Shown here piece by piece: positions 191-29,679 of a stretch of 51,442 bases of DNA. The stretch's first letter is position 1, and each line of letters opens with the position of its first letter. The DNA is from a bacterium (GTDB lineage: Bacteria; Joyebacterota; Joyebacteria; Joyebacterales; Joyebacteraceae), in NCBI GenBank assembly GCA_025774245.1, contig JALGWI010000014.1, positions 1-51,442 on the forward strand, given 5' to 3'. The notes beneath the pieces are model-generated. The model was given only the letters and a program-made list of their open reading frames with translations. It was not told where the DNA came from and did not search any database. A program made the translations under genes and the position numbers.

Positions 191-3028
191 GTGCGAATGG
201 AAAGCAGACCTCTTGTCCTCCTGGGCGTCGCGGCCCTGCTCGTCCTGTCCGTGACCGGGGCTGGTGCCAGGGGCCTCGAGATCGACTCGACGGACGACCC
301 CGTGTGGGGTCGGCAGGACGTCGAAGGCGCGGAATTCCAGAGCGCCCGGCTCGAGACGCTCTGGATCTTCGATGCCCAGTTCAACACGACCACGGGAGAC
401 GACGACTGGACCGTTCTGGACCGTAGCGGCACCTTGGGCATGGAGAACGAGTGGCACAAGGACACGATCCGGATCGGCGGATTCCCGCACCTCGGAGACA
501 GCGCGTGGTGGTGCGGCAAGTACAACGAGTGCTGGCGCCAGCCGCGCGGCTACGGAAACAACTGGCTGATGTCGCTCGAGCGCGCGTTCCCCGAGGTTGC
601 GATCAACACCAACCCCGGTGACGAACTGACCCTCGAGTACGACCAGCGCTTCGCGCTGGAGCACGACTACGATTACGGGTACATCGACGTCTCGACGGAC
701 GGCGGCGACACCTGGGTCACGGAGCACTCGGTCAACAACCCGGGCTTCGCCGGCAAGCCGGGGTTGTCCAAGGACTGGGACGACCCGGAGACCGGTCACG
801 ACACGGTCGATCTGACGATCTACGCGGGTTTGGACGTCGACATCAGGTTCCGGGTCGAGTCCGACGGGGCGTACTCCTCGGAGGACGAGCCCGACAACGG
901 CGCGCCGAACCACTCGGTGCAGGACGGCGCGTGGCAGATCGACAACATCGAGCTGATCGGTCCGGGCGGCACCTTCTGGCTCGACGACTGCGAGTCCCCC
1001 GGCGACAACGGATGGGTGCGCGAGGACACCGAGAACACCGGGCAGATCGGCACCGTGTGGTGGAGAGGTCAGTTCGGGGTCGACTTCTTGACCGGCCGCG
1101 CCTTCACGTGCGACGACAGGCCGATGGGCACCTGGATGTTCGCGCCGGTCGACATCGTCACGAGCGCGATGGTCGACAACGAGAACACGTGGCTCATGAG
1201 CCCGCCGATCGACATCTCCGGCGCGCCGAAGCTCGTCGGCCACTGGGACTACTGGGCCGACGCTCCGGATCCGACCGGCGACCGGTACAACCTGTACCTC
1301 GCGTCGAACGACATCGAGGCGTGCGTGCAGGACCCGGGCGGCTTCCTCGACGAGGATCCGGGGTGGTGGTTCGCCACGGCAGGCTGGCGGACGAAGACCG
1401 ACGATTGGGACGCCTTCGCGGGGAACGCCTGGCTCTCGATCCTTCACGTCGCCCTGAACGACACCCTCGACGCCAACGGCGAGCACTGGGGCGGCATGTT
1501 CCTGAACTTCCAGAGGCTCGGGATCCCCTCGGGCGACGCGGGCACGACGTGGGAGCATCACACGTGGGAGGGCTTCAACGACTGGTTCGTCGACCAGCTC
1601 ACCGACGCGCTCCTCGACACGGCGAGCGTCAAGATCAAGGACGACGACGGCATCGTCTCGGCCAACACACTGGCGTCGAACGACGGCGGCCTCACGTGGA
1701 GCTCCTACGCGGGGCGCAAGCAGGCTCCGGACCCCCTCGACCACTGGTGGTACCTGCCTCCGCCTTCCGCCGAGATGACGATGGGCAGCGTGATCCGGTA
1801 CTACTTCGAGGGCATGGACGGCGTGGGCAACATCGCGACCGATCCCGCCGGCGCGCCCGACAGGTGGTACGAGATGACGATCCTGCCGATCGTCGGAAGC
1901 GAGCTCGAACCGGGGATCCTCCTGGTCGACAAGCACGGACGGCGGACGCCGGGAGCGCAGCGCGACTGGCGCCACAGCTCCGAGTACTACTACACCGAGG
2001 CGCTCGGGATCCTGGGGTACGAGTACGACAAGTACGACGTCGAGGTGCCCTCGGGAAGCAGGCTGTCCGACGGTCCCGACTCGGTCGGCATGAAGTACTA
2101 CGACACCCAGATCTGGTTCAACAACTACTTCGACGCCCACACGCTGAACCGGATCGACCAGTACAACCTGCGCGAGTGGCTGAACCAGGCGGCGCTCCCT
2201 GCGGAGCGGAACCTGCTCGTGACCGGGAACAACGTTGGCCGCGAGCTGATCGGCGCCGGCGTGGAGACGCTGGCCTTCTACGAGACGTGGCTGGCATCCG
2301 ACTGGCTCGAGGACGCGGTCGGCTCGGTGACGGTCGACAGCATACCCGGGCTCGAGGACCACGCGGGCGGCTGGGACTTCCTGACGCACGACGACGGCGA
2401 GGCCATCCTGAGGGGCGGGTGTCCGCATCTCTCGTACTACGACGTCGTCACGCCGACATCCGGCATCGCGGGCACCGAGATCGTGGCCGACTACGTGCGG
2501 CTCGACGAGGTGAGGAAGAACGCGGGCGTCGCGTACACGCACCAGACGCTCGGCTACCAGACGGTGAACCTCGGATTCGGCATAGAGTACATGATGGACG
2601 GCACCCACGGCGGCGGTAGCTCGAACTACACGACCGAGGGCTACTACCACACGGGTCTCGACGACCGCCTCAACCTCATGCAGAACATCATGGACTACTT
2701 CGACAAGGCCGCGGGCGGCGATCCGACGGGCATCGTGGACGGAGGGGTGCGGAACACGCTGAGCCAGGCGTATCCGAACCCGTTCAACCCCGTCACGAAG
2801 ATCGCCTACAGCGTGAGGGAGGCGGGTCGCGTCACGATCCGCGTCTTCAACGTCTCGGGCCGCACGGTGAGAACGCTCCTCGAGGAGGAACTCGCCGCGG
2901 GCGCCACGGGCTTCGTGGTGTGGGACGGCGCGAACGACGCGGGGGAGAGGTGCGCCAGCGGCGTCTACTTCTACCGCATCGAAGCCCCGGGCTTCGCCTC
3001 GTCCCGGAAGATGGTGATGCTGAAGTAG
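191..3028 (+). CDS. Exported multidomain surface protein, paralogue 1 of 5
   Basis: I cannot name a specific function. The GTG at 191 follows GGAGG (181-185) at 5 bases; ATG 197 is the alternative. The 945-aa product starts with a signal peptide (VLLGVAALLVLSV, then AGA|R). Residues ~55-260 form a beta-rich MAM/immune-inhibitor-A-like module, with ETLWIFDAQF, the C-x5-C signature WCGKYNECW, DYGYIDVSTDGGDTW and WQIDNIELIG. A second beta module runs to ~565. Residues ~575-815 look like a Rossmann/glutamine-amidotransferase-like fold (GILLVDKHGR, YDVEVPSGS, YYDTQIWFNNY). The last ~95 residues are the FlgD-Ig/type IX-like sorting domain (YPNPFNPVTKIAYSV, VVWDG, SGVYFYR). I see no HExxH zinc motif, so a protease role is unsupported. 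It is the first of five tandem paralogues and is closed by a hairpin at 3072. Confidence 0.9.
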   Translation: MRMESRPLVLLGVAALLVLSVTGAGARGLEIDSTDDPVWGRQDVEGAEFQSARLETLWIFDAQFNTTTGDDDWTVLDRSGTLGMENEWHKDTIRIGGFPHLGDSAWWCGKYNECWRQPRGYGNNWLMSLERAFPEVAINTNPGDELTLEYDQRFALEHDYDYGYIDVSTDGGDTWVTEHSVNNPGFAGKPGLSKDWDDPETGHDTVDLTIYAGLDVDIRFRVESDGAYSSEDEPDNGAPNHSVQDGAWQIDNIELIGPGGTFWLDDCESPGDNGWVREDTENTGQIGTVWWRGQFGVDFLTGRAFTCDDRPMGTWMFAPVDIVTSAMVDNENTWLMSPPIDISGAPKLVGHWDYWADAPDPTGDRYNLYLASNDIEACVQDPGGFLDEDPGWWFATAGWRTKTDDWDAFAGNAWLSILHVALNDTLDANGEHWGGMFLNFQRLGIPSGDAGTTWEHHTWEGFNDWFVDQLTDALLDTASVKIKDDDGIVSANTLASNDGGLTWSSYAGRKQAPDPLDHWWYLPPPSAEMTMGSVIRYYFEGMDGVGNIATDPAGAPDRWYEMTILPIVGSELEPGILLVDKHGRRTPGAQRDWRHSSEYYYTEALGILGYEYDKYDVEVPSGSRLSDGPDSVGMKYYDTQIWFNNYFDAHTLNRIDQYNLREWLNQAALPAERNLLVTGNNVGRELIGAGVETLAFYETWLASDWLEDAVGSVTVDSIPGLEDHAGGWDFLTHDDGEAILRGGCPHLSYYDVVTPTSGIAGTEIVADYVRLDEVRKNAGVAYTHQTLGYQTVNLGFGIEYMMDGTHGGGSSNYTTEGYYHTGLDDRLNLMQNIMDYFDKAAGGDPTGIVDGGVRNTLSQAYPNPFNPVTKIAYSVREAGRVTIRVFNVSGRTVRTLLEEELAAGATGFVVWDGANDAGERCASGVYFYRIEAPGFASSRKMVMLK

Positions 3029-3071
3029 ATCGGACCTTGCGGGCCTGAGCCAGGCCCCGAGGAGACAGTTC

Positions 3072-3103
3072 GGGAGGGGACGGGAGACTCCTCGTCCCCT
3101 CCC
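3072..3103 (+). terminator. Intrinsic-type hairpin after paralogue 1
   Basis: GGGAGGGGACG (3072-3082) and CGTCCCCTCCC (3093-3103) form a perfect 11-bp stem, 44 bases after the stop codon. Only a weak T tract follows, so termination strength is uncertain. A further GC hairpin (CGCGCCC 3191-3197 with GGGCGCG 3221-3227) lies before the next gene. Confidence 0.6.
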
Positions 3104-3255
3104 TCTGCGTGGAGGCACCCCCTGCCCTCCGTTCAACGCGGAAGAGACATCCCGTGTCCAAAGACGTTGGGAGCGTGCGCCTGACGGCGACGCGCCCACC
3201 CCACCCCCCGGCCCCCCCGGGGGCGCGGCGAAACCCAATGAGCATTCGCATGGAT

Positions 3256-3269
3256 CGATGAGCTGGATC
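3256..3269 (+). promoter_or_regulatory. Leader box, copy 2 (CGATGAGCTGGATC)
   Basis: The box differs from copy 1 at one position and lies 28 bases before GGAGG, the same spacing. Its ATG would open a six-codon reading frame ending in TGA (MSWIAT). In copies 1 and 3 that ATG is instead in frame with the main gene, so a conserved leader peptide is unlikely. Confidence 0.45.
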
Positions 3270-3293
3270 GCGACCTGAGAAGGGGAGGTCCGT

Positions 3294-6125
3294 ATGAAGA
3301 GGATGCTTGTCGTGGCGCTCCTGGTCTGCGTCGCGATGGCGATCTCGGCCCCGACGGCGCTCGCTACGGGCGACGGGACCGGGTTCAACAGCAGCAAGGT
3401 ACGTCCCGTCGGCTCGTCCGACGAAGCGGCGTTCCGCGGAGCGAGAAACGAGACGCTCTGGATTTTCAACGCAGACTTCGAGACCGAGACGGGCGACAAC
3501 GCCGGCTGGACGGTTTTCGACCGCAGCGGAACGGTCGCGGTCGAGAACTACTGGCATCACGACACGATCAGGATCCGCGACTTCGCTCACCTGGGCGACT
3601 CGACCTGGTGGTGCGGAACCAACAACGAGTGCTGGGCCCAGTCCCGCGGTTACGCCAACGACTGGATCCAGGTTCTCTCGAGGAGCTTCCCGGAGGTCGA
3701 GGCGAACACGAACGTCGGGGACGATCTCTTCCTCGAGTACGACCAGCGGTTCGCCATGGAGCACGACTACGACTACGGGTACGTCGACGTCTCGACGGAC
3801 GGCGGCGGGACCTGGACCACGGAGCACTCGGTCACAAACCCGGGATTCGCCGGCAAGCCCGGCCTGGCCCAGGACTGGGACAGCCTCGCGCACGGTCACG
3901 CCGAGGTCAACCTGAGCGACTACGCAGGCCAGGCGATCGACATCCGCTTCCGTTTCGAGTCGGACGTCCAATACTCGTCTGAGGACACCTACAACAACGG
4001 CGCGCCGAACAACTCCGTTCTGGACGGAGCGTGGCAGATCGACAACATCGAGCTGATCGGTCCGGGCGGGACCTTCTGGCTCGACGACTCCGAATCCGGC
4101 GACATGGGCTGGGTCCACGAGGACCAGGAAGCGGCCGGCCAGACGGGACTCGTCTGGTGGCGCGGGCAGTTCGGGATCGACTTCGTGACCGGGCGCGACT
4201 TCACCTGTCAGGACAGGCCGGTCGGCACGTGGATGTACGCTCCCGTCGACATCTTCTCGAGCCAGATGATCGACAACCAGAACACGTGGCTCATGAGCCC
4301 GCCGATCGACATCGAGGGCGCGCCGAAGCTCGTCGCGCACTGGGACCAGTGGGCCGACATGCCGGAGTCCTCGGGCGACCTCCACAGCGTCTTCGTGTCG
4401 TCGAGCGACAACTACGAGTGCGCGACGGATCCCTCGGGCTTCATCAACGAGGAGCCGGGCTGGTGGTTCGCCGATCCCTTCTGGTACAACGAGGTCGACG
4501 ACTGGGACGCCTTCGCCGGGAACAGCTGGCTCGCGTTCTACTGGTCCGTCCGTAACGACACGACGGACGCGAGCGGCGATCACTGGGCCGGTCTCATCCT
4601 CAACTTCCACAAGATCGGCATCCCCTCCGGCGACGCCGGGACCGTGTATGAGGTCGATCAGTGGAACAACTTCAACGACTGGTTCCAGGACGACATCGCG
4701 GAGGCTCTGCTCGACTCGGCCCGCGTCAAGATCAAGGACGACGATGGCATCGACGAGGCCTACGTCGTGGCCACGAACGACGGGGGGGCAACCTGGTTGT
4801 CGTACGCGGGTCACCGGGAGACCCCGAGCGATCCGGACAGCCACTGGTGGATCATGGCGCCACCCTCGGGCCAGATGACCCCGGGGAGCGAGATCCGGTA
4901 CTACTACCAGGCCACCGACGGCGTCGGAAACGTGACGACCTATCCCAGCAGGGCGCCCGACCGGACCTACGAGATGTCGATCCTGCCGATCACGGCTTCG
5001 ATCGCGCAGCCGGGCATACTCCTGGTCGACAAGCACGGCCGGAACACGCCGGGCGAGACGCGCTACGGTGACCCGAGGCACTCGTCTGAGTACTACTACC
5101 GAGAGATGCTCGAGAATCTCGGGATCATCTACGACAAGTTCGACGTGGAGGTGCCCTCGGGGAGCATCCACTCGGACGGCCCGGACACGACGGGCATGAA
5201 GTACTACGAGACGCAGATCTGGTTCACGAACGACTTCAACGCCCGGACGCTCAATGCCACCGACCAGTTCAACCTGCGCGAGTGGCTCAACGAGGCGACG
5301 TCCAGCGTCGAGCGCAACCTGCTCCTCACGGGCAACGACATCGGGTACGACCTGGTCGAGAGCGGAAACGAGACGCTGGCGTTCTACGAGACGTGGCTGG
5401 CCTCCGAGTTCATCGACAACACGGTCGGGACGGTGACGATCGACAGCGTTCCCGGAGTCGAGGACCGCGCGGGCGGCTGGAGTTTCATGACGAACGGTGA
5501 CGCCGAGTGCATCGTGAGAGGCGGTTGCCCGGTCCTGAACGCGTTCGACGTCGTGGAGGCCCGGTCGTTCTCCGGGACCGAGGTCGTGGCCGACTACATC
5601 CGGATGGACTCCGGCCGTAGGCCCGCTGGCGTGGCCTACACGCACGGAACCTCCACGTACCAGACGGTGAACCTTGGGTTCGGCATGGAGTTCATGATGG
5701 ACGGCACCGTGGGCGCGGGCTCCTCCAACTACACGGCGGAGGGGTACTACCACACGGGGCTCTACGACCGCATGAACCTCATGGAGAACATCCTGGCGTA
5801 CTTCGGCGTCGCGACGTCCGAGACGGGCGTCGTGGACGGTGGAGTGCGGAACACGCTGAGCCAGGCGTACCCCAACCCGTTCAATCCGGTCACCAGGATC
5901 GCCTACGGCGTGAAGGAGGCGGGTCCCGTGACGATCCGCGTCTACAACGCCGCGGGACGAGCGGTCAGGACGCTCCTCGACGAGGAGATCGGAGAGCCAA
6001 CCTCGAGCTTCGTGGTCTGGGACGGCAGGAACGGGAACGGGGAGAGGTGCGCGAGCGGCGTGTACTTCTACCGGATCGAGGCTCCGGGCTTCGCCTCGTC
6101 CCGGAAGATGGTGATGCTCAAGTAG
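3294..6125 (+). CDS. Exported multidomain surface protein, paralogue 2 of 5
   Basis: The 943-aa product starts at ATG 3294, five bases after AGGGGAGG. The signal peptide is MKRMLVVALLVCVAMA..., with a likely cut after ALA. Domain order matches paralogue 1: the MAM-like module with WCGTNNECW and DYGYVDVSTDGGGTW (residues ~50-260), a beta module to ~560, the GATase-like region from PGILLVDKHGRN (~570) with YYETQIWFTNDF (~640), and the terminal sorting domain (YPNPFNPVTRIAYGV ... KMVMLK). Here the sorting-domain linker is shortened (ATSETGVVDGG), without the extra DP/DG turn of paralogues 1 and 3. It probably sits on or outside the outer membrane. Its function is unknown. Confidence 0.9.
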   Translation: MKRMLVVALLVCVAMAISAPTALATGDGTGFNSSKVRPVGSSDEAAFRGARNETLWIFNADFETETGDNAGWTVFDRSGTVAVENYWHHDTIRIRDFAHLGDSTWWCGTNNECWAQSRGYANDWIQVLSRSFPEVEANTNVGDDLFLEYDQRFAMEHDYDYGYVDVSTDGGGTWTTEHSVTNPGFAGKPGLAQDWDSLAHGHAEVNLSDYAGQAIDIRFRFESDVQYSSEDTYNNGAPNNSVLDGAWQIDNIELIGPGGTFWLDDSESGDMGWVHEDQEAAGQTGLVWWRGQFGIDFVTGRDFTCQDRPVGTWMYAPVDIFSSQMIDNQNTWLMSPPIDIEGAPKLVAHWDQWADMPESSGDLHSVFVSSSDNYECATDPSGFINEEPGWWFADPFWYNEVDDWDAFAGNSWLAFYWSVRNDTTDASGDHWAGLILNFHKIGIPSGDAGTVYEVDQWNNFNDWFQDDIAEALLDSARVKIKDDDGIDEAYVVATNDGGATWLSYAGHRETPSDPDSHWWIMAPPSGQMTPGSEIRYYYQATDGVGNVTTYPSRAPDRTYEMSILPITASIAQPGILLVDKHGRNTPGETRYGDPRHSSEYYYREMLENLGIIYDKFDVEVPSGSIHSDGPDTTGMKYYETQIWFTNDFNARTLNATDQFNLREWLNEATSSVERNLLLTGNDIGYDLVESGNETLAFYETWLASEFIDNTVGTVTIDSVPGVEDRAGGWSFMTNGDAECIVRGGCPVLNAFDVVEARSFSGTEVVADYIRMDSGRRPAGVAYTHGTSTYQTVNLGFGMEFMMDGTVGAGSSNYTAEGYYHTGLYDRMNLMENILAYFGVATSETGVVDGGVRNTLSQAYPNPFNPVTRIAYGVKEAGPVTIRVYNAAGRAVRTLLDEEIGEPTSSFVVWDGRNGNGERCASGVYFYRIEAPGFASSRKMVMLK

Positions 6126-6160
6126 ATCGAAACGGAGCGGGATCGAACGATCGAGACCGG

Positions 6161-6185
6161 ACGGGGACCCCCTTGGGGTCCCCGT
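6161..6185 (+). terminator. Hairpin after paralogue 2
   Basis: ACGGGGACCCC (6161-6171) pairs perfectly with GGGGTCCCCGT (6175-6185) around a CTT loop: an 11-bp stem starting 36 bases after the stop. It is followed by TCGCTTCGT rather than a clean U tract. Confidence 0.65.
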
Positions 6186-6503
6186 TCGCTTCGTGCGGCC
6201 TCGAGGTCGTCGAAATTACGACGCGAGTCGCGTCGACCGCGTCGAGAATGTGACGCGCGAGGACCCGACGCACGTCGCTCGGTCGCGCCGGAGGCGATGC
6301 GCGTTCGTTCGAGAGCGAACGTCAGTCGAACGAAAGCGAGCGCGAGTCGCACGGAAGCGCCGCGACGCCCGTCGTGGACGCAACCCGGAAGGCCCGCGAG
6401 GTGTCATATCATTTGCGGGACGCGCAACCGTGAGGCCGTCGTCCCGCTCCGCGCCGCCGCGACCGACGGGGCGCGGGAGCGACCAGTGAGTGACAGTGCG
6501 ATT
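6186..6503 (+). other. Gene-free, CpG-rich spacer before paralogue 3
   Basis: No convincing gene lies here; the open frames are arginine-rich and lack ribosome-binding sites. The stretch is crowded with short CG-centred repeats (CGTTCG 6302-6307 with CGAACG 6316-6321, and several GCGAGCG or GTCGCG runs). I could not identify a clear promoter for paralogue 3. Confidence 0.5.
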
Positions 6504-6516
6504 CGATGAGCGGATC
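6504..6516 (+). promoter_or_regulatory. Leader box, copy 3 (CGATGAGCGGATC)
   Basis: The box is as copies 1 and 2 but one base shorter, and lies just before the G-rich ribosome-binding site (AAGGGGGGG) of paralogue 3. Confidence 0.4.
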
Positions 6517-6544
6517 GTCTTGTAGAAGGGGGGGTGACGGAGTG

Positions 6545-9385
6545 ATGCAGAAGAGTGCGTACGTGATGCTCCTTGCGGGCATCGCACTGGTGACCTTCGC
6601 GGTCGGAGCGTCGGCGAAGGCGCCCGACACGGAGTTCAGCAAGCAGTGGATGGAGCCTCATTCCCCGGTGATGCCCTCGGGCGAGCTGAGGGGGGCCAGG
6701 CTCGAGACCCTCTGGATCTTCGATGCGGACTTCGAGGACGAGGCCGGCGACAACGCCGGATGGACCGTGTACGACAACAGCGGCACCCTCGGGGTCGAGA
6801 ACTACTGGCACCACGACACCATCAGGGTGAGCGGCTTCCCGTACCTCGGAGACAGCACGTGGTGGTGCGGCACGTACAACGCCTGCTGGCGGCAGCCGCG
6901 CGGCTACGGCAACAGCTGGCTCCAGATCCTCGAGCGGAACTTCCCGGAGATCGAGGCGAACACGAACGTCGGTGACGACCTCTACCTCGAATACGACCAG
7001 CGGTTCGCCATGGAGCACGACTACGACTACGGGTACACCGAGATCTCGGCCGACGGCGGCGCGACGTGGACGACGAAGCAGACGGCGAACAACCCGGGCT
7101 TCGCGGGAAAGCCGGGCACGTCCAAGAACTGGGACGACCCGGCGGAGGGCCACGTCACGATCGACCTCTCCGAGTACGCGGGTCAGACGATCGACATCCG
7201 GTTCCGGATGGAGTCGGACGCCTTCTACTCTTCGGAGGACGAGCCGAACAACCCGCCAAACAACTCGGTCGAGGACGGCGCCTGGCAGATCGACAACATC
7301 GAGCTGATCGGCCCGGGCGGGACGTTCTGGCTCGACGACTCCCAGTCGGGCAATCTGGGTTGGGTCCACGAGGACACCCCTTCGTCCGGCCAGATCGGCA
7401 CCGTGTGGTGGCGCGGCCAGTTCGGGATCGACTTCGTGACCGGCCGTGACTTCACGTGCAACTCCAGGCCCTACGGCAGCTGGATGTACGCGCCGGTCGA
7501 CATCTTCACGAGCGCGATGGTCGACAACGAGTGGACGTGGCTCATGAGCCCGCCGATCGACGTCAGCGGCGCGCCGAAGCTCGTCGGGCGCTGGGACTTC
7601 TGGGTCGACGCGCCACCCTCCACCGGCGACCTCTTCAACCTCTACCTCGCTTCGGATGACACGCGCGACTGCGTGGAGGATCCGGGCGGCTACATCGACG
7701 AGGATCCGGGCTGGTGGTACGTGTCACCCCCGGGCTGGTACAAGGTCTCCGACGGCTGGGACGCGTTCGCCGGGAACAACTGGCTCGGCGTCATGTGGGC
7801 CGTCCGCAGCGATACGATCGACGTCAGCGGCCTGCACTGGGGAGGCATGTTCCTGAACTTCCAGAAGGTCGGCATCCCCTCAGGAGACGCCGGGACTTCC
7901 TGGACGCACCACGACTGGCTCGACTTCAACGACTGGTTCGTGGACGACATGACCGAGGCTCTCCTCGATTCTGCGTACATCATGGTCAGGGACGACGACG
8001 GCATCACGGCGGTGAACCTCCAGGCCTCGAACGACGGCGGCATGACGTGGTCGACGTACCCGTGTCGCCAGCAGGACCCGAACGATCCGGAGGACTTCTG
8101 GTGGATCGCGGGCCCGCCGGTCGGGCAGATGGTGCCGGCCAGCGAGATCAGGTACTACTTCGAGGCGATCGACGGCGCGGGGAACATCGCGACGGACCCG
8201 GCCGCCGCGCCGGACCGCACGTACGAGATGTCGATCCTGCCGATCACCGGGAGCGTGGCCAATCCGGGCATGCTGCTCGTCGACAAGTTCGGGTACTGGA
8301 CGCCGGGCGAGAGCCGCTACGACGTCCTGCGTACTGCCGAGTACTACTACCGCGAGATGCTCGAGATCCTCGGCTACGAGTACGACGTGTACGACGTCGA
8401 GGTGCCGTCGGGAAGCAGGCTGTCCGACGGTCCCGACACGACCGGCATGAGGTACTACGACACGCAGATCTGGTTCTCGAACTACTACTCGCAGTACACG
8501 CTGAACCCGATCGACCAGTACAACCTGCGCGAGTGGCTGAGCCAGTCGACCCCGAGCGGGCCGCGGAACCTGCTCATCACGGGCAACAACGTCGGCTTCG
8601 AGCTGATGCAGGTCGGGCGCGAGACGCTCTCGTTCTACGAGACGTGGATGGCCTCCGACTACATCGAGGACGAGGTCGGCGTGGTGACGGTCGACAGCGT
8701 TCCCGGGCTCGAGGATCACGCGGGCGGCTGGGACTTCATGACCCACGACGACGGCGAGTGCATCATCCGGGGCGCGTGCCCGCTCCTGCATCGCTTCGAT
8801 GTCGTCCAGCCGTATTCCGGAATCGCGGGGAACGAGACGGTCGCCGACTACGTCCGGATGGACGACGTGAGGAGGATGGCCGGCGTCGCGTACACGCACG
8901 GGACGAGCGGCTACCAGACGGTGAACCTCGGGTTCGGCATGGAGTTCATGATGGACGGCACCGTGGGCGCCGGCGCCTCCAACTACACGACAGAGGGCTA
9001 CTACCACACCGGCCTCCAGGACCGCATCAACTTCATGCAGAACATCATGGACTACTTCGGCCAGAGCCCGACGGGCGACGGGACGGGCATCGTGGACGGA
9101 GGGGTGCGGAACACCCTGAGTCAGGCCTATCCCAACCCGTTCAACCCCGTCACCAAGATCGCCTACAGCGTGAAGGAGGCGGGTCCCGTCACGATCCGCG
9201 TCTACAACGCCGCGGGGCGTGCGGTCAGGACGCTCCTCGAGGAGGAGGTCGACGCGGGCGTCGCGGGCTTCGTGGTCTGGGACGGCAGGACCGAAACGGG
9301 AGAGAGGTGCGCCAGCGGCGTCTACTTCTACCGCATCGAGGCCCCGGGTTTCGCCTCGTCGCGCAAGATGGTGATGCTGAAGTGA
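6545..9385 (+). CDS. Exported multidomain surface protein, paralogue 3 of 5
   Basis: ATG 6545 was chosen because it opens directly on a signal peptide (MQKSAYVMLLAGIALVTF, cut near ASA|K) and follows a G-rich ribosome-binding site; GTG 6542 is equally possible. The 946-aa product has the family order: MAM-like module (ETLWIFDADF, WCGTYNACW, WQIDNIELIG), beta module, GATase-like region (GMLLVDKFGYW, YYDTQIWFSNYY, NLLITGNNVGFEL) and the C-terminal sorting domain (YPNPFNPVTKIAYSV, VVWDGR, SGVYFYR). The conserved stretch YYETW.AS or FYETW.AS followed by D(S)VPGLEDHAGGWDFMTHDDG is shared by all members. It resembles paralogues 1 and 2 most at its C terminus. No catalytic motif is recognised. Confidence 0.9.
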   Translation: MQKSAYVMLLAGIALVTFAVGASAKAPDTEFSKQWMEPHSPVMPSGELRGARLETLWIFDADFEDEAGDNAGWTVYDNSGTLGVENYWHHDTIRVSGFPYLGDSTWWCGTYNACWRQPRGYGNSWLQILERNFPEIEANTNVGDDLYLEYDQRFAMEHDYDYGYTEISADGGATWTTKQTANNPGFAGKPGTSKNWDDPAEGHVTIDLSEYAGQTIDIRFRMESDAFYSSEDEPNNPPNNSVEDGAWQIDNIELIGPGGTFWLDDSQSGNLGWVHEDTPSSGQIGTVWWRGQFGIDFVTGRDFTCNSRPYGSWMYAPVDIFTSAMVDNEWTWLMSPPIDVSGAPKLVGRWDFWVDAPPSTGDLFNLYLASDDTRDCVEDPGGYIDEDPGWWYVSPPGWYKVSDGWDAFAGNNWLGVMWAVRSDTIDVSGLHWGGMFLNFQKVGIPSGDAGTSWTHHDWLDFNDWFVDDMTEALLDSAYIMVRDDDGITAVNLQASNDGGMTWSTYPCRQQDPNDPEDFWWIAGPPVGQMVPASEIRYYFEAIDGAGNIATDPAAAPDRTYEMSILPITGSVANPGMLLVDKFGYWTPGESRYDVLRTAEYYYREMLEILGYEYDVYDVEVPSGSRLSDGPDTTGMRYYDTQIWFSNYYSQYTLNPIDQYNLREWLSQSTPSGPRNLLITGNNVGFELMQVGRETLSFYETWMASDYIEDEVGVVTVDSVPGLEDHAGGWDFMTHDDGECIIRGACPLLHRFDVVQPYSGIAGNETVADYVRMDDVRRMAGVAYTHGTSGYQTVNLGFGMEFMMDGTVGAGASNYTTEGYYHTGLQDRINFMQNIMDYFGQSPTGDGTGIVDGGVRNTLSQAYPNPFNPVTKIAYSVKEAGPVTIRVYNAAGRAVRTLLEEEVDAGVAGFVVWDGRTETGERCASGVYFYRIEAPGFASSRKMVMLK

Positions 9386-9416
9386 TATGGAACGGTCGGG
9401 CCCGACCGTTCCATAT
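9385..9416 (+). terminator. 32-base perfect palindrome at the stop codon of paralogue 3
   Basis: A perfect 32-base palindrome (16-base arms, no spacer, centre CGGG|CCCG at 9400/9401) begins at the last base of the TGA stop codon. It may act as a terminator or as a binding site for a dimeric protein. As RNA it needs at least a GGCC-side loop, leaving about 14 bp of stem. Confidence 0.55.
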
Positions 9417-9455
9417 GGTCTAGACGGATCAGAGCAGGATCGAACGACCTCCACC

Positions 9456-9483
9456 GACGGGGGCTCCATGAGGAGCCCCCGTC
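9456..9483 (+). terminator. Second hairpin after paralogue 3
   Basis: GACGGGGGCTCC (9456-9467) pairs perfectly with GGAGCCCCCGTC (9472-9483) around an ATGA loop: a 12-bp stem, about 70 bases after the stop. It probably insulates paralogue 4, whose promoter starts at 9510. Confidence 0.7.
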
Positions 9484-9509
9484 GTGCTGTGCGGACACGG
9501 CGTCAGCAG

Positions 9510-9538
9510 TTGCCGCGGGCTCGGATCTGTGGTATACT
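9510..9538 (+). promoter_or_regulatory. Sigma-70-type promoter of paralogue 4
   Basis: TTGCCG (9510-9515), a 17-base spacer and TATACT (9533-9538) preceded by TGG. The -10 region is the same as at 114-119. The predicted 5' leader is about 155 bases with small GC hairpins such as CCGGCG 9598-9603 with CGCCGG 9611-9616. No known riboswitch was recognised in it. Confidence 0.7.
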
Positions 9539-9701
9539 TGCGCCGAGTCTGGGAAGACGCGCCGTGCAGGTGCGCCTCAGAAGCGGGTACAGCAGCGCCG
9601 GCGAGACCCACGCCGGTAGCACCGACGCCGGCACTGCCAACGCCGCGCGCCACGACAACGCCGATCGACGGTCGCCCCCCCGACCGAGGAGACCGCTCCG
9701 C

Positions 9702-12566
9702 ATGACGAACTCCGTCCCGCGTGTGCTCGTGACCATCGCCCTGGCGGCGACGATCGCGAGCGTTGCCGTGGCGCGAGAGCCCGAGGCCGAGCCCCGGAGT
9801 CGCCTGCCCAGGATCGACGTCGAGACGATGCGCGGAACCCGCAGGCGGGCGCGGCTCGAGACCCTCTGGATCTTCGACGCCGACTTCTCCGACCTGTCGG
9901 GCGACAACGCCGGCTGGACGTCCTACGACGTCAGCGGAACCGTCGGATACGAAAACGTCTGGCACAAGGACACGATCCGCATCGGCGGCTTCGACCAGCT
10001 GGGGGACAGCACGTGGTGGTGCGGCACCTACAGCAGCTGCTGGCAGCAACCCCGGGGATACGGGAACGACTGGCGGATGATCCTCAAGAGGAGCTTCCCG
10101 GAGGTCGCCGCGAACACGGACCCGGGTGACGAGCTGACGCTCGAGTACGATCAGCGGTTCGCGATGGAGAACGATTACGATTACGGCTACACCGACGTCT
10201 CGACCGACGGCGGCGCGACGTGGACGACGAGACACACGATCGACAACCCGGGCTTCGCCGGCAAACCCGGAAACTCGCAGGACTGGGACAGCGTGTCGCA
10301 CGGCCGCGTGACGATCGACCTCTCCGCGTACGCCGGCCAGACGATCGAGGTCCGCTTCCGGTTCGAGTCGGACAACCTGAACTCGTCGCAGGACTCGCCG
10401 AACAATCCGCCGAACGACTCGTTCCTGGACGGCGCGTGGCAGATCGACAACGTCGAGCTCAAGGGGCCGGGCGGCGCGACGTTCTGGCTCGACGACTGCG
10501 AGTCGCCCGGCGACAACGGCTGGGACCACTCCGATCCGCAGTCCTCCGGGCAGGAGGGCGTCTTCTGGTGGCGCGGGCAGTTCGGATACGACTTCGTCAC
10601 CGGCCGCGACTTCACGTGCGACGACCGGCCGGAGGGCTCCTGGATGTACGCTCCCGTCGACATTTTCTCGAGCGCCATGGTCGACAACGAGTTCACCTAT
10701 CTCGTGAGTCCGCCGATCGACATCAGCGGCGCTCCCAAGCTCGTCGGGAAGTGGGACTGCTGGGCCGACGCCCCGTTGCCGACGGGCGACCTCTTCGACC
10801 TCCTCCTCGCATCGAGCGATCTCGTCGAGTGCGTGACCGACCCGTCGGGGTTCACGGACGAGGAGTTCGGATGGTGGTACGCCGACGCCGGATGGTACGT
10901 CCGGATCGACGATTGGGACGCCTTCGCCGGGAACGACTGGTTCGCGATCATGTGGGCCGCGAGGAACGACACGGTGACGGGGAACGGCAACCACTGGGGC
11001 GGGTTCTTCCTGAACCGCCAGATGGTCGGCGTCCCGTCCGGCGATGCGGGGACGGTCTGGGAACGCTCCGACTGGGAGAACTTCAACGACTGGTTCTGGG
11101 AAGACCTCGCCGACGCGGCCCTCGACTCCACGCGCATCCTGATCAAGGACGACGACGGGATCGTGTCCGCGCACGTGATGGCTTCGAACGACGGAGGGAC
11201 GGCCTGGCACTCCTACGCGTGCCACCGCGAGGATCCCGGCAACCCCTCGAGCCACTGGTGGATCGCCCCGCCGCCCTGGAGCCTGATGGTCCGGGGGAGC
11301 GAGATCCGCTACTACTTCGAGGCGATCGACGGCGCCGGCAACGTGGCGACGTTCCCGGACGGCGCGCCGAACGAGACCTTCGAGATGTCGATCCTCCCGC
11401 TCGACGCGACAACGGATGACCCCGGCCTCCTCGTCGTCGACAAGCACGGACGGGCCACACCTGGAGCGCTCCGATACTCGGGCGAGCTCCTCGAGAGCCT
11501 CGAGCTCACGTACAGCACCGAGCGCTACTACCGCGAGGCGCTCGAGATCCTCGGCTACGAGTTCGAGGTCTACGACGTGGAGGTTCCGTCCGGGAACATC
11601 CTCTCCGACGGTCCGGACTCGAGCGGCATGAAGTACTACGACACGCAGATCTGGTTCACGAGCGACTTCGACGCGTTCACGCTGAACCCGCGGGACCAGT
11701 ACCACCTGATCCAGTGGCTCGGACAGGCCGCGGCGGGAAAGGAGCGGAACCTCCTCGTCACGGGGAACGACATCGGCTACGAACTGATGGAGACCGAGAG
11801 GGAGACGCTGGCGTTCTACGAAACGTGGCTCGCGTCGCACTACCTCGAGGATAAGGTGGGGGCCGTCACGGTCGACAGCGTTCCGGGCCTCGAGGACCAC
11901 GGCGGCGGGCACGCGTTTCTCACAGAGGGGGACGGGGAGTGTATCCTCCGCGGCGCCTGCCCGAGACTGCACTACTTCGACGTCGTCGAGCCGCGCTCGG
12001 GCGTCGGCGGGAACGAGACCGTCGCGGACTACGTCCGCACCGACGGGCTCCGGAGGCCGGCCGGCGTCGCGTACACCCACCCGACGTCCGGCTACCAGAC
12101 GGTCAACCTCGGATTCGGGATCGAGTTCATGATGGACGGTGTCGCGAACGGGGGAGCGTCGAACTACACGCCGGAGGGCTACTATCACACCGGGCTCTTG
12201 GATCGTCTCGACCTCGTGCAGAACATCATGGACTACTTCGGGAAGACGGCCCCGGGGACGGGGACGGGCATCGTCGACGGCGCGCCTGTGAACACGCTGG
12301 CCCAGGCGTACCCGAACCCGTTCAACCCCGTGACGAAGATCGCCTACAGCGTGAAGGACGCCGGCCGGGTGACCGTCCGCGTCTACAACGCGGCGGGACG
12401 CACCGTGCGAACGCTCCTCGACGAGGAGACGGCGGCCGGCACCGACGGCCACGTCGTGTGGGACGGAAGGAACGACCGCGGCGAGCGGTGCGGAAGCGGC
12501 GTCTACTTCTACCGCATCGAGGCACCGGGCTTCGCCGCCTCGCGGAAGATGGTGATGCTGAAGTAG
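9702..12566 (+). CDS. Exported multidomain surface protein, paralogue 4 of 5
   Basis: The frame is open from the palindrome at 9385, but the promoter at 9533 and the signal peptide MTNSVPRVLVTIALAATIASVAVA place the start at ATG 9702, about 10 bases after GAGGAGAC. The 954-aa product has the family architecture: ETLWIFDADFSD, WCGTYSSCW, DYGYTDVSTDGGATW, WQIDNVELKG, a GATase-like part (GLLVVDKHGRATPG, YYDTQIWFTSDF, NLLVTGNDIGYEL) and the sorting domain (LAQAYPNPFNPVTKIAYSV). A ten-residue insertion (SGELLESLEL) precedes the YYREALEILGYEF segment. Its last ~270 bases are nearly identical to those of paralogue 5, unlike the more diverged bodies of the two genes. Confidence 0.9.
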   Translation: MTNSVPRVLVTIALAATIASVAVAREPEAEPRSRLPRIDVETMRGTRRRARLETLWIFDADFSDLSGDNAGWTSYDVSGTVGYENVWHKDTIRIGGFDQLGDSTWWCGTYSSCWQQPRGYGNDWRMILKRSFPEVAANTDPGDELTLEYDQRFAMENDYDYGYTDVSTDGGATWTTRHTIDNPGFAGKPGNSQDWDSVSHGRVTIDLSAYAGQTIEVRFRFESDNLNSSQDSPNNPPNDSFLDGAWQIDNVELKGPGGATFWLDDCESPGDNGWDHSDPQSSGQEGVFWWRGQFGYDFVTGRDFTCDDRPEGSWMYAPVDIFSSAMVDNEFTYLVSPPIDISGAPKLVGKWDCWADAPLPTGDLFDLLLASSDLVECVTDPSGFTDEEFGWWYADAGWYVRIDDWDAFAGNDWFAIMWAARNDTVTGNGNHWGGFFLNRQMVGVPSGDAGTVWERSDWENFNDWFWEDLADAALDSTRILIKDDDGIVSAHVMASNDGGTAWHSYACHREDPGNPSSHWWIAPPPWSLMVRGSEIRYYFEAIDGAGNVATFPDGAPNETFEMSILPLDATTDDPGLLVVDKHGRATPGALRYSGELLESLELTYSTERYYREALEILGYEFEVYDVEVPSGNILSDGPDSSGMKYYDTQIWFTSDFDAFTLNPRDQYHLIQWLGQAAAGKERNLLVTGNDIGYELMETERETLAFYETWLASHYLEDKVGAVTVDSVPGLEDHGGGHAFLTEGDGECILRGACPRLHYFDVVEPRSGVGGNETVADYVRTDGLRRPAGVAYTHPTSGYQTVNLGFGIEFMMDGVANGGASNYTPEGYYHTGLLDRLDLVQNIMDYFGKTAPGTGTGIVDGAPVNTLAQAYPNPFNPVTKIAYSVKDAGRVTVRVYNAAGRTVRTLLDEETAAGTDGHVVWDGRNDRGERCGSGVYFYRIEAPGFAASRKMVMLK

Positions 12567-12591
12567 ATGGAGGTACCGAACCGGATGACGG

Positions 12592-12639
12592 CGCCGGAGG
12601 AGACCGGCGTCGGGAACGGACGGGGGAGTCTCGCTCCCT
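12592..12639 (+). terminator. Weak hairpins after paralogue 4
   Basis: CGCCGG (12592-12597) can pair with CCGGCG (12604-12609), and GGGAG (12624-12628) with CTCCC (12634-12638). Both stems are short and no U tract follows, so read-through into paralogue 5 is plausible. I saw no convincing promoter in this 185-base gap. Confidence 0.35.
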
Positions 12640-12751
12640 CGAAGAGGGTGACGCGCCCGGACCGCGGGTCGGGCTGGCGATGCGGCCGGGTGAAATGCAG
12701 TGGGCGCGAAGGCGCAGGAGACGCCTTCGGAAGCAAGGGGGGGATGAGCGC

Positions 12752-15565
12752 ATGCGTAAGAGACCTCTGGTCTTCCTGACCATCGGCATCGCTCTCGTGG
12801 CGATGGTGTCCGCGGCCTCGGCGACGGGGCCCGGCACGGTGCACACGAGCGCGCGGTCGGCGGCAGGCGGTCCCGCGCCGGAGGCCACCGGGTTCAGGGG
12901 ATCGAGACCCGAGACCCTGTGGATCTTTTGGGCTAACTTCGAGGACCTGGAAGGCGACAACGCCGGGTGGACGGTGTACGACCGCAGCGGAACCATCGCG
13001 ATGCAGAACCACTGGCATCACGACACGATCCGCATCCAGACAGCCTTCACGTGGCTCGGCGACAGCACCTGGTGGTGTGGGACCTACAGCGAGTGCTGGG
13101 CACAGCCTCGCGGATACGGAAACGACTGGGTACAGATCCTCAAGAGGAGCTTCCCGGAGATCGAGACGAACACGAACGTCGGCGATCCCCTGTTCCTCGA
13201 CTACGACCAGCGCTTTGCGATGGAGCACGACTTCGACTACGGCTACACCGACGTTTCGACCGACGGCGGCGATACGTGGACCTCGGTCCACGTGGTCTCG
13301 AATCCGGGCTTCGCAGGCAAGCCCGGCCTCTCTCAGGACTGGGACAGCGTTGCGCACGGCCACGTGACGGTCCCGCTGCCGACGCACGCGGGCCTCACGG
13401 TCGACCTCCGCTTCCGCTTCGAGTCGGACATGGGCTACTCGTCCCAGGATCAGTACAACAACGGCCCGCCGAACAACTCGGTCCAGGACGGCGCGTGGCA
13501 GATCGACAACATCTCGTGGACGGGACCAGCCGGCGTCTTCTGGCTCGACGACTCCGAGTCCGGCCTCATGGGCTGGGACAACGCCGATCAGGTGGCCGCG
13601 GGACAGGAGGGCGTCGTCTACGAACGCGGCCAGTTCGGGATCGACTTCCTGACCGGGCGCGGCTTCACCTGCGAGGACCGTCCCGTCGGGACCTGGATGA
13701 TGGGGGCGGTCGATCCCGTGACGAGCCAGATGGTCGACGGGCAGTACTCGTGGCTCATGAGCCCGCCGATCGACATCAGCGGCGCGCCCAAGCTCGTGGC
13801 GCACTGGGATCAGTGGTGCGACATGCCGCGCACCTCGGACGACGTCTGCAACCTCTACCTGGCCTCGGACGACCTCATGGAGTGCGTCACGGCCCTCGAC
13901 GGGTTCATCGACGAGGATCCGGGCTGGTGGTACGCCGACCCGCAATGGTACGAGGAGTTCGACGACTGGGACGCCTTCGCGGGTAACGACTGGCTCGCGG
14001 TCCTCTGGGCGCAGATGCACGATCCACCGGCGTCGGGGCCGTCGGGCGGCCAGCACTGGGCCGGTCTCATCCTCAACTTCCAGAAGGTGGGGATCCCCTC
14101 CGGCGGCGGCGGGACGGTGTTCGAACCCGACACCTGGAACTGGTTCAACGATTGGTTCCAGGAGGATCTCGCCGAGGCCATGCTCGACAGCGGGCGGGTC
14201 AAGATCAAGAACGACAACGGCGTCAATACGGCTCTCCTCCTGGCCTCGAACGACGGGGGCCTGACGTGGAACTCGTACAACTGCCACAAGGAGAGCGCCG
14301 AGAGCAACTGGTGGGTCGCGCCGCCGCCGCACAACGAGATGACGCCGGGCAGCGAGATCCGGTACTACCTCGAGGCGACCGACGGCAACGGCAACGTCGA
14401 GGTCCACCCCGACAGGGCACCCGACGCGTGGTACGAGATGTCGATCCTCCCGATCACGGCGACCGGACCGAACACGGGCATGCTGCTGGTCGACAAGCAC
14501 GGCCGTCGGACGCCGGGCGAGGAGAGGGACTACCGTCACAGCTCGCAGTACTACTACCGCGAGATGCTCGAGATCCTCGGCTACGTGTACGACGTGTACG
14601 ACGTCGAGGTGCCCTCGGGGAGCACCGACCAGTCGGACGGGCCGGACACGACGGGCATGGCGTACTACCACACGCAGATCTGGTTCACGAACGACTTCAA
14701 CGCCTACACGATCAAGCCCGTGGACCAGGTCAATCTGATCCAGTGGCTGAGCGCGGCCGGCGTCGAGAGAAACCTGCTCATGACCGGCAACGACATCGGG
14801 TTCGAGCTCATGGAAGCCGGGAAGGAGACGCTGGCGTTCTACGAGACATTCCTCGCGTCCCACTATCTCGAGAACACGGTCGGGGCGGTCCTCATCGACA
14901 GCGTTCCGGGCCTCGAGGATCACGCGGGCGACTGGGACTTCATGACGCACGACGACGGCTACTGCCTCGTCAGGGGCGGCTGCCCGGCCCTGAACCAGTT
15001 CGACGTGGTCGAGCCGTTCTCCGGCATCGCCGGAACCGAGATCGTGGCCGACTACGTCAGGGCGGACTCAGAAAGGAAGCCCGCCGGCGTCGCCTACACG
15101 CATGCGACCGCGGGCTACCAGACGGTGAACCTCGGGTTTGGCATGGAGTTCATGATGGGCAGCATGCTGGGGTCCGGTCACTACGAGACCGGCCTCCACG
15201 ACCGCCTCGATCTCATGCAGAACATCATGGACTACTTCGCGATCACGCCGACCGCGGACGGGACCGGGATCGTCGACGGCGTGGCGAGGAACACGCTGGC
15301 CCAGGCGTACCCGAACCCGTTCAACCCGGTGACGAAGATCGCCTACAGCGTGAAGGACGCCGGTCGGGTGACCGTCCGCGTCTACAACGCGGCGGGACGC
15401 ACCGTGCGAACGCTCCTCGACGAGGAGATGGCGGCCGGCACCAACGGCCACGTGGTCTGGGACGGACGGAACGGCCACGGCGAGCGGTGCGGGAGCGGCG
15501 TCTACTTCTACCGCATTGAGGCGCCGGGCTTCGCCGCGTCGCGGAAGATGGTGATGTTGAAGTAG
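12752..15565 (+). CDS. Exported multidomain surface protein, paralogue 5 of 5
   Basis: ATG 12752 follows AAGGGGGGG at about 8 bases and begins the signal peptide MRKRPLVFLTIGIALVAMVSAASA. The frame extends far upstream into paralogue 4, but that part is a shadow. The 937-aa product keeps the family order: ETLWIFWANFED, WCGTYSECW, DYGYTDVSTDGGDTW, a GATase-like part from GMLLVDKHGRR, and the sorting domain. Differences from its siblings are WQIDNISWTGPAGVFW in place of the usual WQIDNIELIGPGG, a longer loop around DPPASGPSGGQHW, and loss of the SNYTTEGYY stretch after MMGSMLGSG. Its C terminus is nearly identical to that of paralogue 4. Confidence 0.9.
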   Translation: MRKRPLVFLTIGIALVAMVSAASATGPGTVHTSARSAAGGPAPEATGFRGSRPETLWIFWANFEDLEGDNAGWTVYDRSGTIAMQNHWHHDTIRIQTAFTWLGDSTWWCGTYSECWAQPRGYGNDWVQILKRSFPEIETNTNVGDPLFLDYDQRFAMEHDFDYGYTDVSTDGGDTWTSVHVVSNPGFAGKPGLSQDWDSVAHGHVTVPLPTHAGLTVDLRFRFESDMGYSSQDQYNNGPPNNSVQDGAWQIDNISWTGPAGVFWLDDSESGLMGWDNADQVAAGQEGVVYERGQFGIDFLTGRGFTCEDRPVGTWMMGAVDPVTSQMVDGQYSWLMSPPIDISGAPKLVAHWDQWCDMPRTSDDVCNLYLASDDLMECVTALDGFIDEDPGWWYADPQWYEEFDDWDAFAGNDWLAVLWAQMHDPPASGPSGGQHWAGLILNFQKVGIPSGGGGTVFEPDTWNWFNDWFQEDLAEAMLDSGRVKIKNDNGVNTALLLASNDGGLTWNSYNCHKESAESNWWVAPPPHNEMTPGSEIRYYLEATDGNGNVEVHPDRAPDAWYEMSILPITATGPNTGMLLVDKHGRRTPGEERDYRHSSQYYYREMLEILGYVYDVYDVEVPSGSTDQSDGPDTTGMAYYHTQIWFTNDFNAYTIKPVDQVNLIQWLSAAGVERNLLMTGNDIGFELMEAGKETLAFYETFLASHYLENTVGAVLIDSVPGLEDHAGDWDFMTHDDGYCLVRGGCPALNQFDVVEPFSGIAGTEIVADYVRADSERKPAGVAYTHATAGYQTVNLGFGMEFMMGSMLGSGHYETGLHDRLDLMQNIMDYFAITPTADGTGIVDGVARNTLAQAYPNPFNPVTKIAYSVKDAGRVTVRVYNAAGRTVRTLLDEEMAAGTNGHVVWDGRNGHGERCGSGVYFYRIEAPGFAASRKMVMLK

Positions 15566-16260: not shown

Positions 16261-16298
16261 CGGGTGATCGCGAGCGACAGCTCGCGTAGCCCGTTTTT
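16261..16298 (+). terminator. Attenuator terminator of the pyr operon
   Basis: CGCGAGC (16269-16275) and GCTCGCG (16280-16286) form a 7-bp stem with a GACA loop. Below it CGGG (16261-16264) pairs CCCG (16290-16293), followed by TTTTT (16294-16298). It is a textbook intrinsic terminator between the promoter and the pyrB start. AACGCA upstream (16249-16254) and TGCGTT downstream can extend the pairing around the U tract. Confidence 0.8.
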
Positions 16299-16329
16299 GC
16301 GTTTCACCCTTGGCCTCGGGGAGGAGAGA

Positions 16330-21557: not shown

Positions 21558-21643
21558 CACGCCGCGTCGAAACGCGTACGCCGACCAGCACGAAAAGAGA
21601 CAGACGGATAGCACGCGCGAAGGAGCCCGCAAAGGAGGTCTCG

Positions 21644-22804: not shown

Positions 22805-22805
22805 C

Positions 22806-24416: not shown

Positions 24417-24426
24417 TCGCGGGAGA

Positions 24427-24444
24427 CGTGCCTCGAGAGGCACG
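24427..24444 (+). other. Short hairpin between guaA and purB
   Basis: CGTGCCT and AGGCACG form a 7-bp stem with a CGAG loop in the 49-base gap. There is no U tract, so it is more likely an mRNA-processing or stability element than a terminator. Confidence 0.4.
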
Positions 24445-24465
24445 CCGCTTCCGCACGGAGAGAAC

Positions 24466-25824: not shown

Positions 25825-25844
25825 GAAGGGGAGGACTCGACGGG

Positions 25845-26549: not shown

Positions 26550-26626
26550 GGAGTAGGGACGGGCGAGAAGAAACGATCGGGTGAACGGGCACGAACGGGT
26601 GCGATGATTCGCAGGGAGGGAGGACG

Positions 26627-29652: not shown

Positions 29653-29656
29653 ACAC

Positions 29657-29679
29657 TGACGGGTACCGGGCACCCGTCA
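29657..29679 (+). other. Hairpin between purH and purE
   Basis: TGACGGGT (29657-29664) and ACCCGTCA (29672-29679) form an 8-bp stem around a 7-base loop in the 67-base gap. No U tract follows, so full termination is unlikely. Confidence 0.45.

What the first reader, a model, noticed from the sequence alone, without database searches (positions are those of the whole stretch)
191..15565. Five tandem paralogues of a large exported protein family without recognised function
Five consecutive 937-954-aa proteins share one unusual order: signal peptide, MAM-like module with an invariant W-C-G-x4-C-W signature, second beta module, a Rossmann/GATase-like part (LLVDKHGR, YYDTQIWF), and the sorting domain. 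No HExxH or other catalytic motif is visible. Such local amplification of large surface proteins suggests selection for dose or variety, for example in adhesion, surface layer or polymer binding. The sequence order is seen; the role is inferred.
Basis: partly seen in the sequence, partly recalled or inferred. Interest (0 to 1): 0.6.

Follow-up and report, generated by a model that had tools for sequence, protein, structure and literature searches.

The report
Exported protein array with Cys-to-selenocysteine switch
Five large exported proteins of unknown role really do sit side by side in this uncultured bacterium, and because some of their sister proteins appear to carry the rare amino acid selenocysteine where these carry one conserved cysteine, that cysteine probably does chemistry (most likely redox chemistry) outside the cell rather than merely holding the protein together.

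Summary
The array is real: five intact paralogues (945, 943, 946, 954, 937 aa; 64-69% identical to copy 3). It is no assembly artefact: a congeneric genome has six copies at the same place, before pyrB. The family occurs in 19 of 20 held genomes of the phylum (named relatives: Candidatus Eisenbacteria), with 1 to 26 matches each. Order: signal peptide, InhA-like MAM jelly roll with invariant WCGx4CW, a second jelly roll, an Ig-like domain, a GATase-like alpha/beta domain, and a T9SS type A sorting domain; the genome has a SprA homologue. I found a candidate: Cys745 (RG-[GA]-C-P) in the GATase-like domain, Cys in 53 of 61 copies. In five paralogues of five genomes the codon there is in-frame TGA. 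Downstream sequence is conserved (dN/dS as upstream); a bSECIS-type hairpin follows at 32-33 nt with two compensatory pairs; all five genomes have tRNA-Sec(TCA) and a TGA-containing selD. These are almost certainly selenocysteine forms, absent from a 2026 list of 119 prokaryotic selenoprotein families/subfamilies. By the Cys/Sec rule, Cys745 is probably a redox-active thiol; reaction and substrate are unknown. The fold rests on weak structural matches. selB was found in two of the five genomes.

The parts
191..3028 (+). Paralogue 1 (945 aa, GTG start, GGGAGG just upstream); Cys744 codon at 2420-2422
3294..6125 (+). Paralogue 2 (943 aa); Cys745 codon at 5526-5528
6545..9385 (+). Paralogue 3 (946 aa), reference numbering; Cys745 codon at 8777-8779
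9702..12566 (+). Paralogue 4 (954 aa); Cys753 (equivalent of 745) codon at 11958-11960
12752..15565 (+). Paralogue 5 (937 aa); Cys744 (equivalent of 745) codon at 14981-14983
6707..7306 (+). Copy 3, first jelly roll (residues ~55-254): InhA-like MAM with WCGx4CW at 107-115; Foldseek matches to B. anthracis InhA2 zymogen, reelin, Eph ligand-binding domain
7319..7882 (+). Copy 3, second beta-rich (jelly-roll-like) module (residues ~259-446), Cys305 and Cys376 conserved
7973..8239 (+). Copy 3, Ig-like domain (residues ~477-565)
   Evidence: secondary structure of the model; the name is inference
8228..9082 (+). Copy 3, GATase-like alpha/beta domain (residues 562-846), model pLDDT 88.6; Foldseek matches to GH42 beta-galactosidase, gamma-glutamyl peptidase 1, CTP synthase, NDST1
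8777..8779 (+). Copy 3, Cys745 codon, the position that is TGA in five sister paralogues
9128..9382 (+). Copy 3, T9SS type A sorting domain (residues 862-946)

Best explanation
The five genes are an old, retained tandem array of a lineage-restricted family of T9SS-exported surface proteins. Two jelly-roll modules and an Ig-like module form a binding or display stalk. A C-terminal alpha/beta GATase-like domain carries one conserved cysteine (Cys745) that works as a reactive thiol, most likely in redox chemistry (thiol/selenol-disulfide exchange, peroxide or other oxidant reduction) at the cell surface. In some sister paralogues this cysteine has been exchanged for selenocysteine, encoded by TGA and specified by a hairpin just downstream. 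Several copies in one genome would give proteins with different binding faces and with Cys or Sec in the active place. Shown: array, architecture, in-frame TGA at the Cys position, constraint downstream, hairpin with covariation, Sec machinery (incompletely). Inferred: that TGA is read as Sec, that Cys745 in the window copies is catalytic, that the reaction is redox, that the stalk binds a substrate.
For: TGA at exactly the Cys745 column in 5 of 61 copies, from five genomes; in the 20-genome search the family's interrupted matches carry TGA only, never TAA or TAG. dN/dS downstream of the TGA 0.18-0.40, the same range as upstream, over 193-197 codons that end in an intact sorting domain. Hairpin with G in the first two loop positions, loop starting 32-33 nt after TGA, stem energy -10.6 to -14.5 kcal/mol, in all five, within the published bSECIS limits (16-37 nt, loop 3-9 nt, stem 4-16 bp, <= -7.5; PMC13188914); two pairs with compensatory changes, 17 of 500 shuffles as good. 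At that spacing the only non-TGA copy with the same hairpin (GCAGCCG-GGTC-CGGCTGC) is one with TGG, which looks like a remnant. tRNA-Sec with anticodon TCA beside a TGA-containing selD in each of the five genomes and in the window's genome; selA in 4 of 5. Cys/Sec pairs mark catalytic redox Cys (PMC2673044). Cys745 is the only Cys of the domain in 12 copies, so it is not simply half of a fixed intradomain disulfide. T9SS: sorting domain over cut-off, SprA in 17 of 20 genomes including this one.
Against: selB was found over cut-off in only 2 of the 5 genomes with TGA copies, although two of the other three are 94-98% complete. At 66% GC, hairpins are common: 10 of 56 non-TGA copies have one somewhere in the searched range, and synonymous recodings of the same peptides give one in 5-22%. 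One related copy has Trp (TGG) at the site, so TGA could in principle have come from TGG. The five TGA copies are not one clade (p-AU 6e-5), so gains or losses must be repeated. Three copies have Trp, Leu or Ala there, so the residue is not indispensable. Known Sec families are mostly Trx-like; this domain is not. The GATase-like assignment rests on TM-scores of about 0.5. In the usual GATase place of the nucleophile this family has Asp/Asn, not Cys (the equivalence is my inference).
Confidence: 0.62

Rival explanations
1. Non-catalytic adhesin, surface-layer or polymer-binding proteins: all modules serve binding, Cys745 is structural (for example a disulfide with Cys739), and gene number reflects selection for variety of surfaces.
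For: First module is MAM/reelin/Eph type, second a jelly roll. GH42's GATase-like domain (the best fold match) is, from general knowledge, an oligomerisation domain without activity. No HExxH. Cys739 is Cys in 48 of 61 copies and could pair with Cys745. The whole unit is fused to beta-helix and Laminin-G domains in giant proteins.
Against: TGA (Sec) replaces Cys745 in five copies, and known Sec functions are redox (PMC2673044). Cys745 stays without Cys739 in 12 copies.
Confidence: 0.25
2. The TGA codons are ordinary nonsense mutations or assembly errors (decaying paralogues), and there is no selenocysteine; Cys745 says nothing about catalysis.
For: One copy in G015 has TGA at a Trp codon elsewhere (residue ~390), probably a plain nonsense mutation or error. 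A related copy has TGG at the site. These are metagenome assemblies.
Against: Same column in five genomes, preserved reading frame and dN/dS beyond it, only TGA, bSECIS-type hairpin with compensatory pairs at constant spacing, Sec machinery.
Confidence: 0.06
3. Cys745/Sec binds or detoxifies a soft metal or metalloid at the cell surface (thiol or selenol ligand), or is a site of covalent attachment, rather than a redox catalyst.
For: A lone exposed thiol or selenol would suit this; metal-related selenoproteins (mercury, MbdU) are on the published list (PMC13188914).
Against: No CxxC or CxxU pair beside it; nothing metal-related was seen among the Pfam hits of the neighbourhood examined.
Confidence: 0.12
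4. Assembly artefact: a repeat of one gene falsely multiplied.
For: The contig begins just before copy 1.
Against: Copies are only 64-70% identical to copy 3 and the array stands at the same place in a second genome.
Confidence: 0.01

Closest known systems
Immune inhibitor A (InhA, peptidase M6) MAM domain, PF20773
   Same: First module matches PF20773 above cut-off in all five; the full model matches the InhA2 zymogen 4yu5 by fold.
   Different: No M6 peptidase domain and no HExxH; the module is joined to a GATase-like domain, which InhA lacks as far as I know.
T9SS-dependent type A cargo (TIGR04183)
   Same: Sorting domain above cut-off at the C-terminus; SprA homologue in the genome.
   Different: The architecture is not one of the named NCBIfam T9SS cargo families (M36, M6i, PorU, PorZ match only through the sorting domain).
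Class I glutamine amidotransferase-like fold (GH42 beta-galactosidase domain, gamma-glutamyl peptidase 1, CTP synthase)
   Same: Foldseek matches at E down to 2.7e-6, TM about 0.5.
   Different: No Pfam GATase match; the likely nucleophile place is Asp/Asn; the conserved Cys lies about 63 residues later.
CTP synthase C-terminal-region-related selenoprotein (NF004836, GxUxG), in the list of PMC13188914
   Same: Also a GATase-like domain with Sec.
   Different: Its Sec is in a GxUxG motif (my reading: the nucleophile elbow); here it is in a DG-U context about 63 residues beyond the elbow, in a secreted multidomain protein.

Membership tests
Selenoprotein (bacterial, TGA-decoded): the five sister paralogues, not the window copies | In-frame TGA aligned with a conserved Cys of homologues | tested here: met
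   5 of 61 copies TGA, 53 Cys
Selenoprotein (bacterial, TGA-decoded): the five sister paralogues, not the window copies | bSECIS hairpin 16-37 nt downstream, G in first two loop positions, stem 4-16 bp, MFE <= -7.5 | tested here: met
   5 of 5; loop at 32-33 nt; -10.6 to -14.5 kcal/mol; covariation
Selenoprotein (bacterial, TGA-decoded): the five sister paralogues, not the window copies | Sequence after TGA under protein-level selection | tested here: met
   dN/dS 0.18-0.40 downstream
Selenoprotein (bacterial, TGA-decoded): the five sister paralogues, not the window copies | Host has tRNA-Sec, SelA, SelB, SelD | tested here: inconclusive
   tRNA-Sec(TCA) and selD in 5 of 5, selA in 4 of 5, selB in only 2 of 5; incomplete metagenome-assembled genomes
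Selenoprotein (bacterial, TGA-decoded): the five sister paralogues, not the window copies | Selenium shown in the protein | not testable with these tools
   needs mass spectrometry or 75Se labelling
T9SS type A cargo | C-terminal sorting domain over TIGR04183 cut-off | tested here: met
   28.7-31.7 bits against 23
T9SS type A cargo | T9SS translocon in the genome | tested here: met
   SprA (TIGR04189) over cut-off in this genome and in 16 of the other 19; other T9SS parts not tested
Peptidase M6 / InhA | HExxH zinc peptidase domain | tested here: not met
   no HExxH, no M6 Pfam match
Class I glutamine amidotransferase (active) | GxCxG nucleophile elbow | tested here: not met
   the only candidate motif, TGN[DN]xG, has no Cys
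Class I glutamine amidotransferase (active) | GATase fold | tested here: inconclusive
   AlphaFold model pLDDT 88.6; Foldseek TM about 0.5 to GATase-fold chains

The most novel reading that the evidence does not exclude
A new selenoprotein family of an unusual kind: large T9SS-exported surface proteins that carry a redox-active Sec/Cys in a GATase-like, non-thioredoxin domain outside the nucleophile elbow, multiplied in tandem arrays in which Cys and Sec forms stand side by side.
Probability: 0.45. Interest if true: 0.8.

Novelty: new variant of a known kind. Interest (0 to 1): 0.6.

Why it matters
It turns a family of unknown function without visible catalytic motif into one with a named candidate catalytic residue that can be tested by a single substitution. 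It adds a probable new selenoprotein family (none of the 119 listed in PMC13188914 is described as MAM- or T9SS-related) and would place selenocysteine chemistry in large outer-surface proteins of an uncultured phylum, where Cys and Sec versions coexist in one tandem array.

Tried and rejected
Whole-protein matches: none in PDB by sequence (the 0.43 hit to 2p67 is chance). Metallopeptidase reading: no HExxH. Artefact reading: rejected by synteny. The sixth TGA copy (G015, L087:5540) is at a Trp codon and was not counted as Sec. Wider distribution: 79 genomes of the phylum of a Poribacteria record gave only two weak MAM-stretch hits; the genome-contig scan found full members only in Eisenbacteria-type records, but it used just two peptide patterns. 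A first try to centre a search outside the phylum by locus id failed. A phage search with one TGA copy failed on coordinates and was not repeated. Literature: no paper on Eisenbacteria with selenoprotein or with type IX secretion in the held library. The 3D position of Cys745 relative to conserved His785 and Asp residues could not be measured, as model coordinates are not given.

Full report
Observation. The window is a whole contig (G000:C64) of a 3.23 Mb, 128-contig genome, 97.4% complete. Five + strand frames end at 3028, 6125, 9385, 12566 and 15565; with starts at 191, 3294, 6545, 9702 and 12752 they give 945, 943, 946, 954 and 937 aa. Copies 1, 2, 4, 5 are 69, 67, 67 and 64% identical to copy 3. 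WCGx4CW is in each; HExxH is in none.

Not an artefact, and old. The same array stands upstream of pyrB in a second species of the genus (G015): six copies, in the order 5-like, 1-like, 2-like, 4-like, 5-like, 3-like, then pyrB, pyrC, pyrD, guaB, guaA, purB; identities of the copies are 62-73%, those of pyrB, pyrC and the purine genes 79-87%, pyrD 65%. A contig of another genus (G016) has 1-, 4-, 2- and 5-like copies in a row. The copies are therefore diverged and retained, which speaks for variety rather than dose. A search of the 20 held genomes of the phylum with the 850-residue profile gave matches in 19, from 1 to 26 each; the window's genome has 13 match rows, about 12 genes, one of them (C52) suspect as a mis-binned contig (see noticed items). 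The named relatives are Candidatus Eisenbacteria or unnamed metagenome-assembled bacteria. In 79 genomes of the phylum of a Poribacteria record only two weak MAM-stretch hits appear.

Architecture. Pfam sees PF20773 (InhA-like MAM) and FlgD_ig, NCBIfam the T9SS type A sorting domain TIGR04183 over its cut-off. The AlphaFold model of residues 25-846 (pLDDT 77.4, pTM 0.62, parts of the first module below 50) shows two beta-rich modules, an Ig-like beta module and an alpha/beta domain. Foldseek finds the InhA2 zymogen 4yu5, reelin and Eph ectodomains. The alpha/beta domain alone (residues 562-846) models well (pLDDT 88.6, pTM 0.91) and matches GH42 beta-galactosidases, gamma-glutamyl peptidase 1, CTP synthase and NDST1, TM about 0.5; I call it GATase-like. 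The SprA translocon protein is in 17 of 20 genomes over the cut-off, this one included, so export by T9SS is likely. The same unit, without its sorting domain directly behind it, forms the N-terminus of much larger proteins with beta-helix and Laminin-G domains.

The candidate catalytic residue. In an alignment of 61 copies, column 745 (copy 3 numbering) is Cys in 53, TGA in 5, Trp, Leu and Ala in one each. The five TGA copies lie in five genomes (G014, G018, G019, G020, G023). No TAA or TAG interrupts any member in the 20-genome search; one more TGA lies elsewhere, at a Trp codon, in G015, and is probably a nonsense mutation or an error. After the TGA the frame runs 196-197 codons to an intact sorting domain, and dN/dS there (0.18 for the closest pair, 0.27-0.40 for the others) is like that before it. 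A GC-rich hairpin with G in the first two loop positions begins its loop 32-33 nt after the TGA in all five; among 56 other copies ten have such a hairpin somewhere in the searched range, but at this spacing the only one with the same hairpin is the Trp copy, which has the identical sequence. That copy looks like a former Sec gene with a remnant SECIS; remnant SECIS structures are described for Cys homologues of other families (PMC1794560). The hairpin meets the published bSECIS limits (PMC13188914), and two of its six pairs show compensatory changes (17 of 500 shuffles as good; five sequences only). Synonymous recoding of the same peptides gives a hairpin of this sort in 5-22% of trials (with a stem as long as observed in 0.6-22%), so the hairpin alone is weak evidence; together with position, frame and selection the case is strong.

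Machinery. tRNA-Sec with anticodon TCA is found by ARAGORN next to selD in all five genomes and in the window's genome, and these selD genes have the Sec TGA with their own hairpin. By family search tRNA-Sec scores over the cut-off in all 20 genomes, though in G026 at 50 bits only; selD is in 20 of 20, over the cut-off in 19, selA over the cut-off in 16 of 20. selB was searched in 14 genomes: 9 over the cut-off, including this one and two of the five TGA genomes (G019, G023, handles matched through the loci they hold). The other three may have lost it in assembly, but G018 is 98% complete, so this is a real gap.

Evolution. In the family tree the TGA copies lie in one set of 13 rows (SH-aLRT 98) with Cys, Trp and Leu copies; one clade of the five alone is rejected (p-AU 6e-5), so Sec was gained more than once or was gained once and lost several times. 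In G020 and G018 the TGA copy lies within a tandem array beside Cys copies. The window's own genome has a Leu copy in this part of the tree.

Function. Known functions of Sec are redox functions, and a Cys that pairs with Sec in homologues is generally redox-active (PMC2673044). Cys739 is Cys in 48 of 61 copies and could form a disulfide with residue 745, but in 12 Cys copies Cys745 is the only Cys of the domain. I therefore take Cys745 as a reactive thiol (probability about 0.65) and the protein as a surface-exposed thiol/selenol enzyme with binding modules. Substrate and reaction are not known. The strongest rival is a purely binding protein with a structural Cys.

Compared with what is known. 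The table of 119 prokaryotic selenoprotein families/subfamilies of 2026 names none that is described as MAM-, InhA- or T9SS-related; the nearest by fold is a CTP-synthase-related GATase with GxUxG, where Sec takes another place. I file the TGA copies as a probable new selenoprotein family, and the window proteins as its Cys-containing relatives.

Noticed in passing
window 16264-31560 (+): Directly after the array: a pyrimidine and purine biosynthesis cluster (pyrB, pyrC, pyrK-like, pyrD, pyrF, guaB, guaA, purB, purF-like, purH, purA), in part with the same order in G015.
   Followed up: partly
window 33650-36256 and 37467-40205 (+): Two more probable T9SS cargo genes; the first has FlgD_ig and a sub-cut-off BNR_2 match, the second no Pfam match; both tails match the sorting domain.
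   Followed up: no
G000, whole genome: 149 stretches match the query in a 3.2 Mb genome, nearly all through the sorting domain: a very large T9SS-type cargo load.
   Followed up: no
L087:5540 (G015:C18): A family copy is interrupted by TGA at a Trp codon (about residue 390); its relative in the window's genome (C11) is uninterrupted. Probably nonsense or error, though a hairpin can also be drawn after it.
   Followed up: partly
G000:C52 (L094) and L034 (Meg19_46_Bin_182): The family copy on C52 is almost identical to one from a genome of another genus (tree branches 0 and 0.0024): C52 may be a mis-binned contig.
   Followed up: no
G000:C97:2223-3388 and G000:C30:94415-95571: Two selD plus tRNA-Sec pairs in the window's genome: duplication or contamination (3.2%).
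   Followed up: no
window, last 84 nt before the stop of each of the five copies: These stretches are 87-94% identical in DNA among the copies, well above the rest: strong constraint or gene conversion of the sorting tail.
   Followed up: partly
L095 (G019:C104), G000:C111, G000:C52: The same N-terminal unit heads giant open frames (6030, 3134 and 2112 aa); the two scanned with Pfam (C104, C52) have beta-helix domains, C104 also Laminin-G.
   Followed up: partly
alignment A5, columns 48-52 (after the hairpin of the TGA copies): AGGAG is invariant just after the hairpin in all five TGA copies; it could be coding, chance or a ribosome-pausing site.
   Followed up: no
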